Shown: piece by piece, positions 3,970-15,071 of the stretch
Layout of the letters: every line of letters begins with the position of its first letter
Position numbering within the stretch: the first letter of the stretch is position 1
DNA from: Aquisalimonas sp.
GTDB taxonomy: Bacteria > Pseudomonadota > Gammaproteobacteria > Nitrococcales > Aquisalimonadaceae
Reading direction: 5' to 3'
Length of the DNA stretch: 15,071 nucleotides
NCBI GenBank assembly: GCA_007127625.1
Contig: SKYZ01000395.1
Location: 1-15,071 of the forward strand
Notes under the pieces: model-generated
The model's input: the letters and a program-made list of their open reading frames with translations, nothing else
Database searches by the model: none
What the model was told of the DNA's origin: nothing
Position numbers and translations under genes: made by a program

Positions 3970-4389
3970 ATGGCCGCACACACCGAGACGCCGGATGCCA
4001 CGCTGGGGCTTCCATATCGCCATGCACACTGGGCGTTGCGATTCGCTCTGGCGAGCGTGTTCATCTACCACGGCATTGACAAGTTCCTGGGCGGGGGCGT
4101 CGCCGAATTCTCTGCCGCCATGGGTTTGCCGTGGATCCTGGGACTGCTCGTCGCACTCACGGAGATCGCAGCCGGCGTGCTGATTGTCGCCGGCGCGCTG
4201 ATCAACCCGTGGATCACGCGACTCGGAGCATTGCTGATGGTTCCGGTGATGATCGGCGCCATCGTCATGGAGCACTGGGGGCAGTGGCACTTCATGGCGA
4301 CACCCAGCCATCCGCTGGGTGGCATGCAGTTTCAGGTAACACTCCTGATGATCGCCCTTTACTTCTTTATTCGCGGGAACAACGCCTGA
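3970..4389 (+). CDS. DoxX-family membrane protein
   Basis: A 139-residue protein with four predicted membrane segments and DoxX-family signatures: WALRFALASVFIYHGIDKF at the N-terminus, a GLLVALTEIAAGVLIVAGAL helix, and a short His/Trp-rich loop (EHWGQWHF) before the last helix. The family includes the small subunit of thiosulfate:quinone oxidoreductase and many small redox-linked membrane proteins of unknown role. GGGAGG precedes the ATG. The stop is 14 bases before the Glu-rich protein A gene, so the two are probably one operon. That pairing suggests DoxX acts in the membrane alongside the modified, membrane-directed peptide, but the exact link is unknown. Confidence 0.85.
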   Translation: MAAHTETPDATLGLPYRHAHWALRFALASVFIYHGIDKFLGGGVAEFSAAMGLPWILGLLVALTEIAAGVLIVAGALINPWITRLGALLMVPVMIGAIVMEHWGQWHFMATPSHPLGGMQFQVTLLMIALYFFIRGNNA

Positions 4390-4403
4390 ACAGGAGGTCC
4401 CTC

Positions 4404-4700
4404 ATGGGCAGCGAAGACAGCAAACGCAGCGAACTCGCAAGGACGCTTTCGAAAGGAGTGGCATACACGGCTCCGCTGATTGTAGCGGTGGCAGGCATCG
4501 CCTCGGTACACGCCATCCTCGGGGATGCCACCAACGCTGACAGCGGTTACTACATGGCGGCGGCCGGAGAAGCCGAAGGCGAAGCCATGCCGGAGGCTGA
4601 AGGAGAAGCCGAGGGGGAAGCCGAAGCAGAGGCTGAAGGAGAAGCGGAGGGCGAGGCTGAAGGAGAAGCTGAAGGCGAAGGAGAGGCTGAAGCGCAATGA
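4404..4700 (+). CDS. Glu/Gly/Ala-repeat protein A (candidate modification substrate)
   Basis: A 98-residue protein of two parts. Residues 1-40 hold a polar stretch, then TLSKGVAYTAPL (14-25) and a hydrophobic run to about 37, resembling an export signal. Residues 55-98 are Glu alternating with Gly or Ala (EAEGEAEGE type), ending GEAEAQ. The same N-terminal motif occurs in protein B and in the cytochrome at 11578-12246. AGGAGG precedes the ATG. It follows doxX by 14 bases and is followed by a perfect 9-base-pair hairpin. No family is recognised. Because a TTLL-like ligase with a leader-binding-type domain is encoded next door, I infer the acidic tail is glutamylated or otherwise extended. It could instead be an unmodified polyanion that binds cations or basic proteins. 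Confidence 0.75.
   Translation: MGSEDSKRSELARTLSKGVAYTAPLIVAVAGIASVHAILGDATNADSGYYMAAAGEAEGEAMPEAEGEAEGEAEAEAEGEAEGEAEGEAEGEGEAEAQ
4566..4697 (+). repeat. GEAE codon repeat tract of protein A
   Basis: An imperfect purine-rich repeat, mostly GAA/GAG alternating with GCC/GCT/GCG or GGC/GGA, encoding the acidic tail of protein A. Synonymous codons vary along the tract. Confidence 0.8.
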
Positions 4701-4712
4701 CGAGACGTGCCA

Positions 4713-4734
4713 CGGCGTCCCTGATGGGACGCCG
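4713..4734 (+). terminator. Hairpin after protein A
   Basis: CGGCGTCCC-tgat-GGGACGCCG is a perfect 9-base-pair stem with a 4-base loop, starting 12 bases after the protein A stop. No T-tract follows, so it may end transcription weakly or protect the 3' end of the doxX-A transcript. Confidence 0.5.
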
Positions 4735-4784
4735 GAGCATCGTTGCGCCCTAAGGAAACGTCGAATTCCCGCTGATCACTGCAC

Positions 4785-4821
4785 AAGAAAAAACACCTCC
4801 ACGGATTACCGCGGAGGTGTT
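4785..4821 (-). terminator. Rho-independent terminator after protein B
   Basis: On the minus strand, AACACCTCC pairs with GGAGGTGTT (9 pairs), then one mismatch and a 3-pair CGG/CCG inner stem with a 4-base loop. A run of T follows (plus-strand AGAAAAAA). It lies about 20 bases beyond the protein B stop and separates the convergent A and B transcripts. Confidence 0.85.
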
Positions 4822-4841
4822 CGGCACGAGCGCGTCGGCAA

Positions 4842-5138
4842 TCAGGCTTCGCCTTCGGCTTCTCCCTCGCCCTCGCCCTCGCCTTCTCCTTCTCCTTCAC
4901 CTTCGCCCTCACCTTCGCCCTCACCTTCACCCTCGCCTTCACCTTCGCCCTCGGCTTCTGCGACCACGATCTGATCCGTCTGCTCGACGTCAGTGGCACC
5001 GAGTTCGGCGGGGTTGGTATCGCTGGCCACTGCCTGCCCTGCGCCGTAGACGGCGACAAGCATCAGTGGCGCGGAATACAGCAACCCTTTGGAGAGGGTT
5101 CCCATTAACGATTGACGACTGTCTTTCGACTGTGACAT
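4842..5138 (-). CDS. Glu-Gly-repeat protein B (candidate modification substrate)
   Basis: Also 98 residues. Residues 1-13 are polar; TLSKGLLYSAPL (14-25) aligns without gaps with the same positions in protein A; the hydrophobic run ends in GQAVA, a plausible signal peptidase site before SDTN. Residues 41-60 form a short neutral spacer. Residues 61-98 are almost entirely alternating Glu and Gly, ending EAEGEA, much like tubulin C-terminal tails in composition. GGAGGAG precedes the ATG. It is divergent from the TTLL-like gene across 177 bases and ends at a clear terminator, so it is probably its own transcript. A role as substrate of the neighbouring ligase is inferred from position, the tail and the shared leader. 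Confidence 0.8.
   Translation of the reverse strand: MSQSKDSRQSLMGTLSKGLLYSAPLMLVAVYGAGQAVASDTNPAELGATDVEQTDQIVVAEAEGEGEGEGEGEGEGEGEGEGEGEGEGEGEGEAEGEA
4845..4958 (-). repeat. Glu-Gly codon repeat tract of protein B
   Basis: A near-pure two-codon repeat with GAA and GAG alternating with GGC, GGA and GGT in no fixed order. The mixture of synonymous codons argues the amino-acid pattern is selected, beyond simple slippage. Confidence 0.85.
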
Positions 5139-5208
5139 TCACTCCTCCTTCGCTTGCTTTACGGCATACCATACCGTTGCACGCCGCAATCACGGCGTCA
5201 CTGAAGTA

Positions 5209-5237
5209 TTGATGAGCAACTGTTCTGACGCTATACG
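5209..5237 (+). promoter_or_regulatory. Candidate promoter of the TTLL-like gene
   Basis: TTGATG (-35) and TATACG (-10), each matching the sigma70 consensus at 4 of 6 positions, are separated by 17 bases. The predicted start of transcription is about 70 bases before the ATG at 5316. It lies in the divergent region shared with protein B. Confidence 0.45.
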
Positions 5238-5315
5238 CAATTCAACGTACATGAGCACCTACCGTCCCGTGATACGTTTCCGGATACTCTCGCTGGCAAC
5301 GAAGGAGACGGGGTC

Positions 5316-7781
5316 ATGGCCTCGCGAGCACTGAAGAAGAAGTACTGGCTGGGCGGCAAGCGGGAGGCAGCGCAGGACCGCTTTTTTCTGGAAGCACTTG
5401 ACCCGGAACTCTGGACCGAAGGGGATGCAAGCGAGTGGGATACCTGCTGGTACACGGGCATGCCGGATCAATCCGCCTTCCGGCAACTCGAAACCGGCAA
5501 GACCATCAACCACATCCCCGGTAACAATGGCCTCACGATCAAGAGCAATCTGTACCGAACCCTGAACGACATGTACCAGCGTGTCGTCGCCCAGGACGGC
5601 GTTAACAGCGAGGCAGCTCGTCGACTCCGGTTCTTCCCGAGAGTCTACTCGATGCCCACGGAGTACCATGCGCTCCAGGAAGCCGCACTGGCCCGCCCGG
5701 ATGCCCACTGGATACTGAAACCGAAGAACTCGGCCCGGGGGAAAGGGATCTCCGTGCTGGAGGACGTGGCCCTGGCACCGCTGGATAACGCCTCCATGGT
5801 TCAGGAGTACGTGGGCAACCCGCACACCATGTGGGGGCACAAATACGTGCTGCGCCTCTATGCGGTGATTACGTCGGTGGTGCCGCTGCGGGTGTATCTG
5901 TACAACGAGGGATCCGCAAAGCTGGCGTCGGCGCCGTACGATCTGGAGCACTTTGACAATATCTACGCCCACCTGACCAACCCCGACGTCAACGCCACCA
6001 ACACCGAGAGCGAATCGCCGGTGGTTTTCCGGAGCCTCGCCAGCTATCGCCAATGGCTCCGTGAAGACGGCCACGACGACGACAAGCTGTTCGCGCGCCT
6101 GCGCGACATGGTTGCTCTGACAGCAATCGGCGTGCGCGAGCGCATGCGCAACCGGCTAGCGGAGGTCAAGGCGGATACGACGGGATGTTACGAGCTGCTG
6201 GGATTCGACTGTCTGGTCGACGCCGACCTCAACCCATGGATTCTGGAGTGCAACCTGAGTCCGTCACTGGAAGTCTGCGCCGCCCCCAAGGACGGTGGCG
6301 AGGTGGAGGAGCAGATGAAGCGCCGTCTGGTTGGCGACCTGGTGGCACTGCTCAACCTCAACGGCGACAGCGCCGATGCCGACAATGTCAGCGCCCCGGC
6401 TGCGCGAATCGGGGCCGTGGCCGAGGGGGAACTGCGGAGAGCAGGCGACTACACACGGGTCTACCCCGATTCCGACCCCGAAGCCTATCTGCCCTACTTC
6501 CCCCTGCCCCGCCAGGCCGACCTGGCGCTGGCCGATGCCGTTACCGGCAGCGCGGTACAGCGGCCGAAGGTACGTCCGCACCGGGTCCAGGAGATCATCG
6601 GTGAGGGCCGGCTCGGGTTATACGGCGAGCGCGAGGGCACACTGTACACCCCCAACGACGTTGCCGCCTGGATCTGGCTTCAGGCCACCGACGGCGTTGC
6701 CCCGGACAGCATTGCCGATGCCCTGCTGGACGCCCAGCGGCAGGCCGGGCAGCCCGCCGACGACTGGACGGTTCGGGAGCAGGTCTGGGATATCCTGGCA
6801 GATTCGGCTGCCTCCAGCCTGCTGCTGCAGGGTACACAGCCCTCAGGGGTGCCGGATTCGCAGGCTGACCCCGACGGCACGACCGAATCCGACGACTCCG
6901 GTGTCGAGCCGTCGTCGCTGTTCACGTTTGCCGGCGAGCGCTCCCTGCGCATCACGCTCCCTGATGCACCGGTTGCATCGCGAGTCGCAGCGGCTTTCCC
7001 GGCTTTGCGTGAGAGCGCATCCGCCGAGGAGACCCTGTCGGTGCTGCGCTCGGGACGCGGCTATGCCATTGCCGACCACCGGGGCGTGAAGGCGGATGGG
7101 TTACGCCTTGCCCAGGTGGCACCGGTTCTCCGGCAGATGCTGTTGAACCGTGGGCTTACCGACGCGGACGAACTCGCCCTGGACGGGGTTCTGGTTCCTG
7201 TCACGGCGGCGGATGCGGCCGGCAATGCCGGAACAGCCATCCTGGTCACCAGCAGGGACCCGGCGCTGGCCGGCGCGGCGGCCATCATGGTGGCCCGGGC
7301 CGTCGGGAGTCAGCGATTCAGTGGGGGACTCTACCTGCCGCCGGACGGTGGCCCCGTCCGGGCCGCTGGTCTGCCACTGGTGGTTGATCACGGCGTGGGT
7401 GCAGATCTGCTAAATGACCACCACTCGCGGCATTTGCATCAGACACGAGCTGGTGCACCAACACACTTGATGATTCCACCCACGGATCGAACACGCCCCG
7501 GCTATAAGGTCGGCACTGTGCTTGTGGCTCAGACGGAGACGTCCGGGGGCACCGATGCGGTCCTGCAGACCGCGGACCGCCTGGACGTTCTTTCGGCGAT
7601 ACTGCCAGTGCTGACCGGAGCCCGCGGCGTTGCCCCCGACGGCGCCCAGATTACCGGGCTGAATCAACGCCTGGAGGGAATGGAGCTGTTTGCCCTCGAC
7701 GTTACGGAACCCTCCAGGGCATCGCACGCCTTGACCGGTTGGCTCGACACGGATCGAGAAACGGTCGCAGGACCCTCATGA
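5316..7781 (+). CDS. TTLL-like ATP-grasp ligase with PqqD-like and degenerate HPr-kinase-like regions
   Basis: An 821-residue protein with no signal peptide, so cytoplasmic. Residues 1-345 match the tubulin-tyrosine-ligase family: WILKPKNSARGKGI (ATP-binding lysines K135, K137), QEY (163-165), KYVLRLYA with R180, HLTNPDVN (219-226) and GFDCLVD...WILECNLSPSL, with E311 and N313 as expected Mg ligands. Residues about 430-506 resemble PqqD, the fold that binds leader peptides: an LY..EGTLY strand pair, AAWIWLQATDG, then helices. Residues about 535-810 resemble HPr-kinase-like domains found beside PqqD proteins, but no GxxxxGK[ST] P-loop is visible, so that part is probably not a kinase. AAGGAGA precedes the ATG. 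ATGA overlap couples it to the VTT gene. TTLL enzymes link amino acids to Glu side chains or tails; the flanking Glu-rich proteins are the likely acceptors. The TTLL call is firm, PqqD moderate, HprK-like tentative. Confidence 0.85.
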   Translation: MASRALKKKYWLGGKREAAQDRFFLEALDPELWTEGDASEWDTCWYTGMPDQSAFRQLETGKTINHIPGNNGLTIKSNLYRTLNDMYQRVVAQDGVNSEAARRLRFFPRVYSMPTEYHALQEAALARPDAHWILKPKNSARGKGISVLEDVALAPLDNASMVQEYVGNPHTMWGHKYVLRLYAVITSVVPLRVYLYNEGSAKLASAPYDLEHFDNIYAHLTNPDVNATNTESESPVVFRSLASYRQWLREDGHDDDKLFARLRDMVALTAIGVRERMRNRLAEVKADTTGCYELLGFDCLVDADLNPWILECNLSPSLEVCAAPKDGGEVEEQMKRRLVGDLVALLNLNGDSADADNVSAPAARIGAVAEGELRRAGDYTRVYPDSDPEAYLPYFPLPRQADLALADAVTGSAVQRPKVRPHRVQEIIGEGRLGLYGEREGTLYTPNDVAAWIWLQATDGVAPDSIADALLDAQRQAGQPADDWTVREQVWDILADSAASSLLLQGTQPSGVPDSQADPDGTTESDDSGVEPSSLFTFAGERSLRITLPDAPVASRVAAAFPALRESASAEETLSVLRSGRGYAIADHRGVKADGLRLAQVAPVLRQMLLNRGLTDADELALDGVLVPVTAADAAGNAGTAILVTSRDPALAGAAAIMVARAVGSQRFSGGLYLPPDGGPVRAAGLPLVVDHGVGADLLNDHHSRHLHQTRAGAPTHLMIPPTDRTRPGYKVGTVLVAQTETSGGTDAVLQTADRLDVLSAILPVLTGARGVAPDGAQITGLNQRLEGMELFALDVTEPSRASHALTGWLDTDRETVAGPS

Positions 7782-8461
7782 TCCGGCTCCTGGTGGCGGC
7801 TCTACTCCTGGTGGCCGCAGGGAGCACGGGGTGGCTGCTCTACGATGCCGGGTACCTGGAGCGCGAAGGACTCGTCGAGTGGGCCGGCGACAGCGGCATA
7901 CTGGCACCCCTGATCGTCATGGGTGCCATGATGCTGGCGGTGGTGGTAGGGCCGATCCCCACGGTACCAATCTCGGTGGCCAGTGGCTTGCTGTTCGGCC
8001 CCGTCATGGGTTTTGGCTACGCCATGCTGGGTGCACTGCTCGGGGCCGCCGCGAGCTTCTGGATCGCCAGACTGGCCGGGCGGCCGGTCATGGAACGGTT
8101 CTTCGGGGGACATGCATCGTTCTGTCGGGACTGCAGTGACCGCATGCTGTTCTGGGTGGTGCTGGGTACCCGGCTGATACCGGTGATTTCGTTCGCCCTG
8201 GTGAGCTATGGGGCGGGACTGACGGCCATGAGCATCCGCGCTTTCCTGACAGCGACGGCTATCGGCATGGTGCCAATGACATTCGTCTACGTTGCCATTG
8301 GCGCGCAGATCACCGTGAATGTCTGGTGGGCGGCCGGGGGCAGCGCGGTCGCGCTGCTCCTGCTGCTCGCCCTGCCCAGGATCGTGGAGCGCTACAACCC
8401 CTTCGGCCTGCGCCGGTATCTCGGTCACGCCGGAATCAGTTCTTCTCTCAGCGACCACTGA
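7778..8461 (+). CDS. VTT/DedA-family membrane protein
   Basis: A 227-residue protein with five or six hydrophobic segments and VTT (SNARE-associated/DedA) signatures: GPIPTVPISVASGLLFGPVMG, then GALLGAAASFWIARLAGR, and a later RLIPVISFALVSYGAGL segment. Relatives act in membrane lipid transport and homeostasis. The ATG overlaps the TTLL-like stop as ATGA, with AGGA just upstream, so translation is coupled and the two proteins are probably needed together. A cysteine pair in FCRDC sits in a cytoplasmic or periplasmic loop. A hairpin 18 bases after the stop likely ends the operon. A direct role in handling the modified Glu-rich proteins is possible but not shown. Confidence 0.85.
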   Translation: MIRLLVAALLLVAAGSTGWLLYDAGYLEREGLVEWAGDSGILAPLIVMGAMMLAVVVGPIPTVPISVASGLLFGPVMGFGYAMLGALLGAAASFWIARLAGRPVMERFFGGHASFCRDCSDRMLFWVVLGTRLIPVISFALVSYGAGLTAMSIRAFLTATAIGMVPMTFVYVAIGAQITVNVWWAAGGSAVALLLLLALPRIVERYNPFGLRRYLGHAGISSSLSDH

Positions 8462-11577: not shown

Positions 11578-12246
11578 CTACTGCTGCTCCTGGAATGCCG
11601 GCTGTTCCACCCGCTCGTAGTACTCCACCAGGGCAGCCAGCTCCCGGGAATCCCAGGCCAACGGATCTTCCGCCATGGGAATGACCATGCAGACCTGGAT
11701 CATCTCGTCCAGGTGGATGCGGTCGATGCCGAATTCACTTTGCGCCATGTCGACCAGATGCGGATAGGGCTCGGCAAACGTCTGTTCATACTGGGCTCCG
11801 CCGGCATGGCACGTCATGCAGGAAACTCCGGTGCTCGAGAGGCTGGCATCCCCGTACAGCTCCTCGCCGTACTCAAGCAGCTCATCGGGATCCCCTTCAT
11901 ACGGCTGATAGTCGTCCGGGCGCGTGACAGCCTCCACAGGCACATCGGCCTCTGCTTCGCCTTCCGCTTCGCCCTCGGCTTCACCTTCCGCCTCACCTTC
12001 CGCCTCACCTTCCGCTTCCCCTTCCGCTTCGCCCTCGGCTTCACCTTCCCCTTCAGCTCGGGCTTCGCTGACGGCCATGACCCGTTCCGAAGCTTGCCCA
12101 GCGAGAGTTTCAGTCTGTTCGGCAGCGAAGGTCGTGCTCGCCCCGTAGGCCGCCACCAGCAACAAGGGCGCAGACCCAATCAAACCTTTTGTGAGAGTGT
12201 CCCGGAGTTCGCCCCGTTTTTCGGTATTCTTATTGTCCTCGCCCAT
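11578..12246 (-). CDS. Monoheme c-type cytochrome with EAEG-repeat linker and shared leader
   Basis: A 222-residue protein in three parts. Residues 1-42 carry TLTKGLIGSAPLLLVAAYGA (17-36), matching the leaders of proteins A and B, and end in a plausible signal or anchor. Residues 64-101 are an acidic linker with about seven EAEG units. Residues about 108-222 form a cytochrome c domain with one heme site, C143-x2-C146-H147, and a candidate distal Met in VIPMAEDP (M191). Heme is attached in the periplasm, so the protein must be exported. GGAGGG precedes the ATG. The shared leader and Glu-rich stretch suggest it is a third substrate of the TTLL-like enzyme although it lies about 4 kb from that gene. 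The redox partner is unknown. Confidence 0.85.
   Translation of the reverse strand: MGEDNKNTEKRGELRDTLTKGLIGSAPLLLVAAYGASTTFAAEQTETLAGQASERVMAVSEARAEGEGEAEGEAEGEAEGEAEGEAEGEAEGEAEGEAEADVPVEAVTRPDDYQPYEGDPDELLEYGEELYGDASLSSTGVSCMTCHAGGAQYEQTFAEPYPHLVDMAQSEFGIDRIHLDEMIQVCMVIPMAEDPLAWDSRELAALVEYYERVEQPAFQEQQ
11944..12057 (-). repeat. EAEG codon repeat tract inside the cytochrome gene
   Basis: Repeated 12-base units (plus strand, gcctcgccctcg-like and gcttcaccttcc-like), encoding EAEG. Some neighbouring units are nearly identical, so recent expansion by slippage or recombination is likely here, more so than in protein B. Confidence 0.75.
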
Positions 12247-13536: not shown

Positions 13537-14412
13537 ATGCAGCGAACAGGCACCTGTATCAAGACCCTGACCACGGCCGCGGCCCTGACCGCGCTGGCAC
13601 CGCTTGCCACGGCCAACGCCGCCGAGACGATCGAGGAAGTCTATTCGGACTACCAAGTGCTCCTGGACCGCCACCTCGTCACGAAAGATCTGCCCGGTGA
13701 CGGCCTCGTCTCGGCGTTCGACTACCAGGCAGCGCTGGAACGCGACGACACAAGCGAACTACTTCAACGGCAACGGGAAGCACTGGCGCAGTTCGACACG
13801 GCCGCCATGGACAGCCGCGAAGAAGGGAACGCATTCTGGCTCAATGCCTACAATTTCTTCATGATCGCTCATCTGCTCGAGGAACGCCCTGACGGCAACC
13901 TGGTCGACTCCGTCTGGGACTACGGCGGCCGCTACAACCCGTTCCGTGCCAGTGTCTTCGAGCGCGAGCTGTTCGAAGTGGATGGCGAGGAGCACAGCCT
14001 GAGCGGGATCGAGAAGGGCATTCTCCTTGGCGATACATACTGGGAGAAGGGCTGGGCCGAGGCCCGTGTGCACTTCGCCGTAAACTGTGCCTCGGTGGGG
14101 TGCCCGCCCCTGCGCAGCGAGGTCTACACGCCGGAGAACGTGGACGACTACCTGACCGAGAACACGCGCCGCGCGTTCAACACCGAACGGCAACTCCACG
14201 TTGACGGCAACACACTCCATCTGTCCGAGTTGTTCGACTGGTACGAGGAAGACTACGTACGCGAGGAAGGCTCGGTGCGCTCCTTCATCAAGGCATACGC
14301 GGCCCCTGAGGTCACCGAGGCTGTCGAGGGCACTGACCGGATCCGGTTCATCGACTATGACTGGACGCTGAACGCACCGGAGAACTTCCCCGAACTTCAG
14401 GACAGTGACTGA
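13537..14412 (+). CDS. Exported DUF547-family protein
   Basis: A 291-residue protein. Residues 1-29 are a signal peptide ending ATANA before AETIEEV. The rest matches DUF547: NAFWLNAYNFFMI (98-110), the RYNPFRASVFERELFEVDG region, LSGIEKGIL, and the hallmark VHFAVNCASVGCPPLR (178-193) with H179 and the cysteines C184 and C189. The fold resembles papain-like or transglutaminase-type domains, and the His and Cys could form an active site, but the reaction is unknown. GGAGA lies 5 bases before the ATG. The glutamate-synthase fragment begins at or just after its stop. Confidence 0.9.
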   Translation: MQRTGTCIKTLTTAAALTALAPLATANAAETIEEVYSDYQVLLDRHLVTKDLPGDGLVSAFDYQAALERDDTSELLQRQREALAQFDTAAMDSREEGNAFWLNAYNFFMIAHLLEERPDGNLVDSVWDYGGRYNPFRASVFERELFEVDGEEHSLSGIEKGILLGDTYWEKGWAEARVHFAVNCASVGCPPLRSEVYTPENVDDYLTENTRRAFNTERQLHVDGNTLHLSELFDWYEEDYVREEGSVRSFIKAYAAPEVTEAVEGTDRIRFIDYDWTLNAPENFPELQDSD

Positions 14413-15071
14413 GGGCACCGCTGCAAGACCGCGGCCGCCCAGCCGGATGATCGAGATCAAGCTCTTCCAGGGGGCCAAACCCGGCCATGGCGGCATCTTG
14501 CCGGCCGCGAAGGTGAATGCTGAAATCGCTGAAGCCAGGGGCGTGCCCATCGGCCAGGACGTGATCTCCCCCGCCGCACATTCAGCCTTTCACACGCCGC
14601 TGGAGTTGATCGATTTCGTCGGACAACTCCGGGAACTGTCCGGTGGCAAACCCGTGGGCATCAAGCTCGCCATCGGCCACGCGTGGGAGTGGTTCGCCAT
14701 CGTCAAGGCCATGCTCCAGCGTGATCGCGTTGTAGATTTCGTCGTGGTTGATGGCGGCGAGGGCGGAACCGGAGCGGTCCCCCTGGAACTCGTCAACCGC
14801 CTGGGCATGCCCATGGATGATGCGTTACGCCTTGTCCATAACACCCTGGTGGGTGCCGGGCTGCGCGACCGTGTCCGGGTCGCCTGCGCCGGCAAGATCA
14901 CCTCCGCGTTCAAGATCGCCCGCTGCATGGCACTGGGCGCGGACTGGTGCAATGCCGGGCGTGGCTTCATGTTCTCCCTGGGATGCATCCAGTCCCTCAG
15001 CTGCCATACCGACAAATGCCCCACGGGTGTCGCGACCCAGGATCCGGGGCGCAACCGGTCCCTGGATGTCA
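14405..15071 (+). CDS. Glutamate synthase-type FMN-domain protein lacking its N-terminal half (runs off window)
   Basis: The translated segment begins near MIEIKLFQGAKPGHGG and continues with GVPIGQDVISPAAHS, DFVVVDGGEGGTG, HNTLVGAGLRDRVRV, ADWCNAGRGFMFSLG and CIQSLSCHTDKCPTG. These match the second half of the FMN-binding TIM barrel of glutamate synthase and the Cys motif (C-x5-C-x4-C) for a 3Fe-4S cluster. Usual stand-alone family members are about 500 residues; about 200 N-terminal residues, including the first barrel strands, are absent because the intact DUF547 gene sits there. The start is GTG 14405 (overlapping the DUF547 stop by 8 bases) or ATG 14447. It is either a truncated, probably inactive gene or part of a rearranged one. 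The 3' end lies outside the window. Confidence 0.7.
   Translation, partial: MTEGTAARPRPPSRMIEIKLFQGAKPGHGGILPAAKVNAEIAEARGVPIGQDVISPAAHSAFHTPLELIDFVGQLRELSGGKPVGIKLAIGHAWEWFAIVKAMLQRDRVVDFVVVDGGEGGTGAVPLELVNRLGMPMDDALRLVHNTLVGAGLRDRVRVACAGKITSAFKIARCMALGADWCNAGRGFMFSLGCIQSLSCHTDKCPTGVATQDPGRNRSLDV

What the first reader, a model, noticed from the sequence alone, without database searches (positions are those of the whole stretch)
3970..8461. A bacterial tubulin-ligase-like system with Glu-Gly-tail substrates encoded alongside
The 821-residue protein retains the key TTLL residues (K135, K137, R180, E311, N313) and its gene lies beside two genes for 98-residue proteins with alternating Glu/Gly or Glu/Ala tails. 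Eukaryotic TTLL enzymes modify the Glu/Gly-rich tails of tubulin, so the enzyme and acceptor types match here without tubulin. I know of no described bacterial pathway with this set. Seen: the ligase family, the tails, the gene order. Inferred: that the tails are the acceptors, and that Glu, Gly or another amino acid is added.
Basis: partly seen in the sequence, partly recalled or inferred. Interest (0 to 1): 0.95.

Follow-up and report, generated by a model that had tools for sequence, protein, structure and literature searches.

The report
Bacterial tubulin-type glutamylase with leader-tagged tails
Several groups of bacteria carry an enzyme closely related to the ones that decorate tubulin tails in our cells, together with proteins that share one leader and bear glutamate-repeat tails, which the enzyme likely recognises through that leader and would modify by adding glutamate.

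Summary

The two 98-aa proteins, and a third with a cytochrome c domain at 11578-12246, share one leader followed by Glu-Gly/Ala repeats. A leader-tail protein accompanies the enzyme in 83 of 84 loci or their genomes. In the window's order, 17 of 17 genomes with the enzyme have one, even where the genes lie over 100 kb apart. Tails avoid Asp (Glu:Asp 1886:24), and one genus uses Pro-Glu-Ala repeats, so Glu is the shared element.

Most likely: leader-guided glutamylation of tails before export, a bacterial counterpart of TTLL5 acting on RPGR Glu-Gly repeats. The chemistry is untested. The paper searches I ran showed no description.

The parts
5316..7781 (+). TTLL-RRE ligase, 821 aa (stop included in the coordinates)
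   Evidence: Pfam TTL 2.1e-50; profile against the PDB: TTLL6 4.5e-61; AlphaFold2 model pLDDT 88, pTM 0.85
5496..6275 (+). ATP-grasp (TTL) domain, residues 61-320; catalytic residues K135, R180, D298, E311, N313; R141 (elongase Gln in TTLL6) and L314 (His in TTLL6)
6570..6830 (+). predicted RRE (PqqD-like winged helix), residues 419-505
6903..7766 (+). PEPCK-like C-terminal domain, residues about 530-817, no Walker A; likely a pseudo-kinase
4404..4700 (+). Protein A, 98 aa: leader plus Glu-Ala/Glu-Gly tail, likely substrate
   Evidence: leader hit E=3.5e-18 in the whole genome
4566..4697 (+). Glu/Gly/Ala tail of protein A, residues 55-98
   Evidence: read from the translation
4842..5138 (-). 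Protein B, 98 aa: leader plus (EG)n tail, likely substrate
   Evidence: leader hit E=3.1e-19
4845..4958 (-). (Glu-Gly)n tail of protein B, residues 61-98
   Evidence: read from the translation
11578..12246 (-). Protein C, 222 aa: same leader, (EGEA)n tail, then a cytochrome c domain with CxxCH; likely substrate
   Evidence: leader hit E=2.3e-13; SoxA/TsdA cytochrome c 5.2e-05, below cut-off; above cut-off in a relative, 4.8e-09
3970..4389 (+). DoxX-family membrane protein, ending 14 bases before protein A; role unknown
   Evidence: Pfam DoxX 4.6e-13
7775..8461 (+). VTT-domain membrane protein, overlapping the end of the ligase gene; role unknown
   Evidence: Pfam VTT 2.6e-25; its cluster occurs in 24 of the 85 sequences clustered

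Best explanation
The 821-residue protein is a TTLL-family ligase with a predicted RRE domain, and it likely adds glutamate to the side chains of glutamates in the repeat tails of proteins that share one leader. Proposed steps: (1) the RRE would bind the conserved leader (consensus RxxLLxxLSRxLxYxAPxL) of the tail proteins; (2) the ATP-grasp site would activate an acceptor glutamate and ligate a free amino acid, most likely glutamate, making branched, more acidic tails; (3) the leader likely doubles as a Sec-type signal, so the modified tail would be exported, either alone or as a tag on periplasmic haem proteins; (4) in the periplasm the branched polyanionic tail would hold cations or dock the haem protein, which is the weakest step. 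Shown: family, predicted folds, shared leader, tails, and gene co-occurrence. Inferred: leader binding, acceptor, donor, export and purpose.
Against: No chemistry was measured, and the donor amino acid is inferred from relatives. The window protein's own PqqD hit is below cut-off (E=0.025). The initiating-type pair is not universal: TTLL7, which can initiate (recalled), has Met and Arg at these positions. Two genomes of the order (G312, G321; 84% and 86% complete) have the leader and a Glu-repeat tail but no ligase hit. The distant TTLL of G194 has no leader protein. In the genome of L078 the leader scores only E=0.024 with the leader alignment, so this locus counts mainly by its tail. The leader also looks like a Sec signal, so part of its conservation may serve export. 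The loci were found with a ligase profile and the leader model was built from the tail ORFs, so its 108 of 109 is partly by construction; the genome scans are the independent test, and the three samples share the window's own genome. No leader peptidase or deglutamylase was identified.
Confidence: 0.7

Rival explanations
1. The ligase modifies the tails as proposed, but adds glycine, tyrosine or another amino acid rather than glutamate.
Against: Glutamylases are the nearest relatives by profile and fold.
Confidence: 0.15
2. It is a graspetide-like system: the ATP-grasp enzyme makes internal amide or ester links between tail Glu and a Lys, Ser or Thr.
For: ATP-grasp enzyme plus leader plus acidic core is the graspetide plan, and some tails hold Lys (146 of 4348 residues).
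Against: 38 of 107 distinct tails hold no Lys, Ser or Thr, and 50 hold no Lys. The enzyme is TTLL-type by profile and fold.
Confidence: 0.05
3. The tails are unmodified acidic linkers or cation binders, and the ligase acts on some other molecule in the same pathway.
For: Acidic low-complexity tails need no enzyme to bind cations, and the substrates are not proven. No call excludes this.
Against: The ligase carries a domain with the fold of leader-binding RREs, and the leader occurs with it in 17 of 17 genomes of the order, sometimes far away on the chromosome. Asp is rare in the tails, which mere acidity would not demand.
Confidence: 0.08
4. The leader is only an export signal, and the association with the ligase reflects operon inheritance.
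For: The leader has a basic start, a hydrophobic stretch and AxA-like ends, and is followed by haem domains in part of the proteins.
Against: Strong leader hits were confined to ligase-bearing genomes in the class and phylum samples, and the link holds where the genes are unlinked.
Confidence: 0.05

Closest known systems
Eukaryotic TTLL glutamylases (TTLL6, TTLL7, TTLL11; TTLL5 with RPGR ORF15)
   Same: Same fold and catalytic residues; acceptors are Glu/Gly-rich tails; for TTLL5-RPGR, an interface outside the repeats (CID-BD) serves substrate choice (PMC13052805, passages).
   Different: The likely targets are not tubulin; docking would be by a predicted RRE on an N-terminal leader; the tails are joined to that leader and in part to haem proteins; found here in bacteria.
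RiPP systems with an RRE (lasso peptides TbiB1/TfuB1, PQQ PqqD)
   Same: RRE fold at 1.3-1.4 A; a short conserved leader shared by several precursor types; enzyme and precursor genes mostly adjacent.
   Different: The modifying enzyme is a TTLL ligase; the core is a Glu repeat of median 39 residues, often part of a larger haem protein; no leader peptidase or exporter gene was identified.
Graspetides (microviridin type)
   Same: ATP-grasp enzyme with leader-bearing acidic precursor.
   Different: 38 of 107 tails hold no Lys, Ser or Thr to cross-link; the enzyme is of TTLL type.
RimK and other bacterial glutamate ligases (recalled, no call)
   Same: ATP-grasp addition of Glu to a bacterial protein.
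   Different: RimK acts on the C-terminus of ribosomal protein S6, without an RRE or a leader.
HvfX/bufferin copper RiPPs (DoxX-type partner)
   Same: DoxX-family gene beside a signal-like leader with a low-complexity tail (the resemblance of precursors is recalled).
   Different: The DoxX protein scores 18.4 against a cut-off of 80 for HvfX; Cys makes up 3 of 4348 tail residues.

Membership tests
TTLL family (PF03133) | TTL domain above curated cut-off | tested here: met
   172 bits against 20.1
TTLL family (PF03133) | Invariant ATP-grasp catalytic residues | tested here: met
   K135, R180, D298, E311, N313 in 79 of 79
TTLL glutamylase | Closest fold and sequence to glutamylases rather than TTL or glycylase | tested here: met
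TTLL glutamylase | Microtubule-binding domain after the catalytic core | tested here: inconclusive
   An RRE fold and a PEPCK-like domain follow instead; absence of a short helical motif was not tested separately
TTLL glutamylase | Glutamate ligation | not testable with these tools
   needs mass spectrometry
RiPP | RRE (PqqD-like) domain in or beside the enzyme | tested here: met
RiPP | Precursors with a shared leader and a variable core | tested here: met
   (114 leader ORFs at E<=1e-3); cores of EG, EA, EAK and PEAX types
RiPP | Leader binds the enzyme and directs modification | not testable with these tools
   no complex was modelled
RiPP | Dedicated leader peptidase or exporter | tested here: inconclusive
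   none seen among the neighbour clusters annotated; a general signal peptidase would not be linked; a C92 amidase occurs in 28 of 85 sequences, role unknown
Graspetide | Core with acid and Lys/Ser/Thr partners for cross-linking | tested here: not met
   38 of 107 tails have none of Lys, Ser or Thr
HvfX/bufferin | HvfX equivalog match | tested here: not met
   18.4 bits against cut-off 80

The most novel reading that the evidence does not exclude
Bacteria have their own 'tail code': a leader-guided TTLL enzyme builds branched glutamate chains on Glu repeats of periplasmic haem proteins and stand-alone tail peptides. It would be a class of ribosomal-peptide modification in its own right and the bacterial counterpart, perhaps the ancestor, of tubulin and RPGR glutamylation.
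Probability: 0.55. Interest if true: 0.92.

Novelty: new variant of a known kind. Interest (0 to 1): 0.87.

Why it matters
If true, tubulin-type tail glutamylation, regarded as part of the eukaryotic cytoskeleton, has a full bacterial form with its own substrates and its own way of choosing them. It gives a simple two-gene test bed for TTLL chemistry, joins the RiPP and tubulin-code fields, and gives a function to genes now named 'amylase', 'TTLL5' or 'PqqD family peptide modification chaperone' (names seen) and to small proteins named 'hypothetical'. It also makes the origin of eukaryotic TTLLs directly testable.

Tried and rejected
Rejected: the graspetide reading, HvfX membership, and chance low-complexity ORFs. 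K137 as a key residue was dropped. A kinase role of the C-terminal domain is disfavoured: Walker A in 0 of 77 rows, and the domain is missing from 6 of 6 g235 enzymes.

Led nowhere: a single-protein scan of genome contigs found no relative; the alignment scan did. A leader search with protein B in the protein database found one protein, 'hypothetical'; with a Halomonas leader it found 26, of which 11 are named hypothetical, one a permease and 14 carry no name. Within the limit E<=0.001, the L130 haem protein has no Pfam hit and L129 only a sub-threshold P460 hit besides a low-complexity one.

Leader hits not counted as leader proteins: G238, G241, G305, G463, G620 and G670, each E 2e-4 to 3e-3, and weak second hits in G278 and G325. 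I read seven of these eight (all but G278's): six have no Glu-repeat tail and read as unrelated frames; G241's resembles the leader but has a Pro/Thr tail. The fold searches list the best rows only, so an absent family there proves nothing.

Papers: PMC12710340, PMC7470986, PMC4431377 and PMC8939145 were searched for terms only; PMC12366701 and PMC13052805 seen in passages. Searches for a bacterial TTLL-RRE pathway: in a library without most subscription journals. I saw listings and abstract starts, capped at 20 of 53, 20 of 73, 10 of 15, 10 of 681, 10 of 51, 4 of 4 and 1 of 1; the ten shown matched the two genus names only. The 2020 TTLL6 paper is not held.
Full report
What is there. The window (contig C24 of a 3.04 Mb, 83%-complete genome) holds a TTLL-like gene at 5316-7781 +. 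On its 5' side lie two short genes, A (4404-4700 +) and B (4842-5138 -), each of 98 codons, and further off a third, C (11578-12246 -, 222 codons). All three begin with one leader and continue into Glu-rich repeats: (EA/EG) in A, (EG)n in B, and (EGEA)n followed by a cytochrome c domain with CxxCH in C. A and B each have AGGAGG before the start codon, so the starts are sound. A follows DoxX by 14 bases. The VTT gene overlaps the end of the ligase gene.

The tails belong to the enzyme. One search found 141 relatives in the species collection and kept the best 80 loci. With three and the window, 84 loci were scanned: 76 have a Glu/Gly/Ala tail ORF within 3 kb of the ligase, and 60 of the 65 with full flanks do. 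Of the other eight, L008, L054 and L062 have an adjacent leader protein that the filter missed, and L046 has one 4.75 kb away. L007, L022 and L035 have leader proteins elsewhere in the genome. Only L084, a distant TTLL of 29% identity, has none. A leader model built from 104 tail ORFs finds 114 ORFs at E<=1e-3; 108 are tail ORFs of the strict filter, and the six others also carry Glu-rich stretches, two of them cut at or close to a contig or locus end. The one tail ORF of 109 without a leader is cut off by its contig end. These figures are partly circular, so whole genomes were searched with a leader alignment (A3) and the ligase separately. In the window's order (54 genomes) 17 have the ligase and all 17 have the leader; two more (G312, G321) have strong leader hits without a ligase hit, and G305 has a weak one (Fisher p=3.6e-12 with 17, 0, 2, 35). 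All 19 strong cases carry Glu-repeat tails. In a class sample of 274, strong leader hits occur in the three genomes with the close ligase family and no others; two weak hits do not count, and G194 has only the distant TTLL. In a phylum sample of 398 the three ligase genomes are the three with leader hits at or below 6e-12, with Glu tails; three more hits at 3e-4 to 8e-4 lie in frames without such tails. The window's genome is in all three samples. In G311 and G316 the two genes are more than 100 kb apart on one contig, so mere operon inheritance does not explain the link.

What is modified. In 107 distinct tails (4348 residues) Glu makes up 43.4%, Ala 24.3% and Gly 22.7%, Glu stands at every second place in 1494 of 1776 steps, and Asp occurs 24 times against 1886 Glu. 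The ligases of the same loci have 4526 Glu and 4860 Asp, so the tails select Glu, not negative charge as such. Glu is encoded by GAA and GAG, and Gly and Ala by all four codons each, which speaks for selection on protein rather than recent DNA slippage. The eight g235 leader proteins read use repeats such as PEATPEAMPEA, so Gly is not essential and Glu is the shared element. Of 107 tails, 38 have no Lys, Ser or Thr, which argues against internal cross-links.

Where it goes. Of 109 tail ORFs, 70 have at most 60 residues after the tail, 38 continue into a CxxCH domain, and one is a cut piece that also holds CxxCH. The haem domains are of two kinds: a cytochrome c of SoxA/TsdA type (4.8e-09 in L021), and in Rhodobacteraceae a different domain with a sub-threshold P460 match in one of two scanned (8.9e-05). 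One relative has LAAC in its leader, like a lipobox. Covalent haem attachment and lipoprotein processing happen outside the cytoplasm (general knowledge), so the leader likely also serves Sec export. The ligase needs ATP, so modification would precede export.

How it would work. The enzyme would be held on its substrate by the RRE-leader contact and work along the repeat, adding branch glutamates. A similar plan, docking apart from the Glu-Gly repeats, is described for TTLL5 and RPGR, whose repeats are mostly monoglutamylated (PMC13052805, passages). The purpose in the periplasm is open. Frequent neighbours, each named from one representative (an ECF sigma factor in 49, an MDMPI_N/DinB-like protein in 44, a C92 amidase in 28, VTT in 24, rhodanese in 23 and DUF3179 in 21 of the 85 sequences clustered, which count the window twice), suggest a stress-responsive envelope function, which is a guess.

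Novelty. The searches named in Tried and rejected showed no description of a bacterial TTLL-RRE pathway; the library lacks most subscription journals, the lists were capped, and I recall a 2009 survey of amidoligases by Iyer and colleagues that discusses bacterial TTL relatives, which I did not read. Databases name the enzyme amylase, TTLL5, TTL family protein or PqqD family chaperone, and 11 of 12 named leader proteins are hypothetical. Each half is known, from TTLLs and from RiPPs; I found the union nowhere, so I file it as a new variant of a known kind with high interest.

Noticed in passing
14405-15071: Open-ended + strand ORF that reads like an FMN-binding glutamate synthase family protein (by eye, no search).
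   Followed up: no
1240-2592: Membrane protein with two nucleoside-recognition (Gate) stretches; an Rrf2-type regulator lies at 64-528.
   Followed up: partly
L125 (G241): 80-aa ORF with a similar start (RRELLGRLGRFAAYTPPAML) and a Pro/Thr-rich tail in a genome without a ligase hit; perhaps a related leader used by another enzyme.
   Followed up: partly
L096-L101 (g235 genomes): Six short TTLL-RRE enzymes (487-596 aa frames) without the PEPCK-like domain, paired with Pro-Glu-Ala repeat tails.
   Followed up: yes
L129, L130, L049: Leader plus Glu tail fused to a haem domain with CxxCH near its end, weakly P460-like, in Rhodobacteraceae; no clear family.
   Followed up: partly
loci cluster c3, e.g. 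L028:17666-18421: YiiX-type C92 amidase in 28 of the 85 clustered sequences; could be tested as a remover of added glutamates.
   Followed up: no
L084 (G194): A distant bacterial TTLL (29% identity, about 370-aa frame) in a genome with no leader hit; likely a different TTLL pathway.
   Followed up: no
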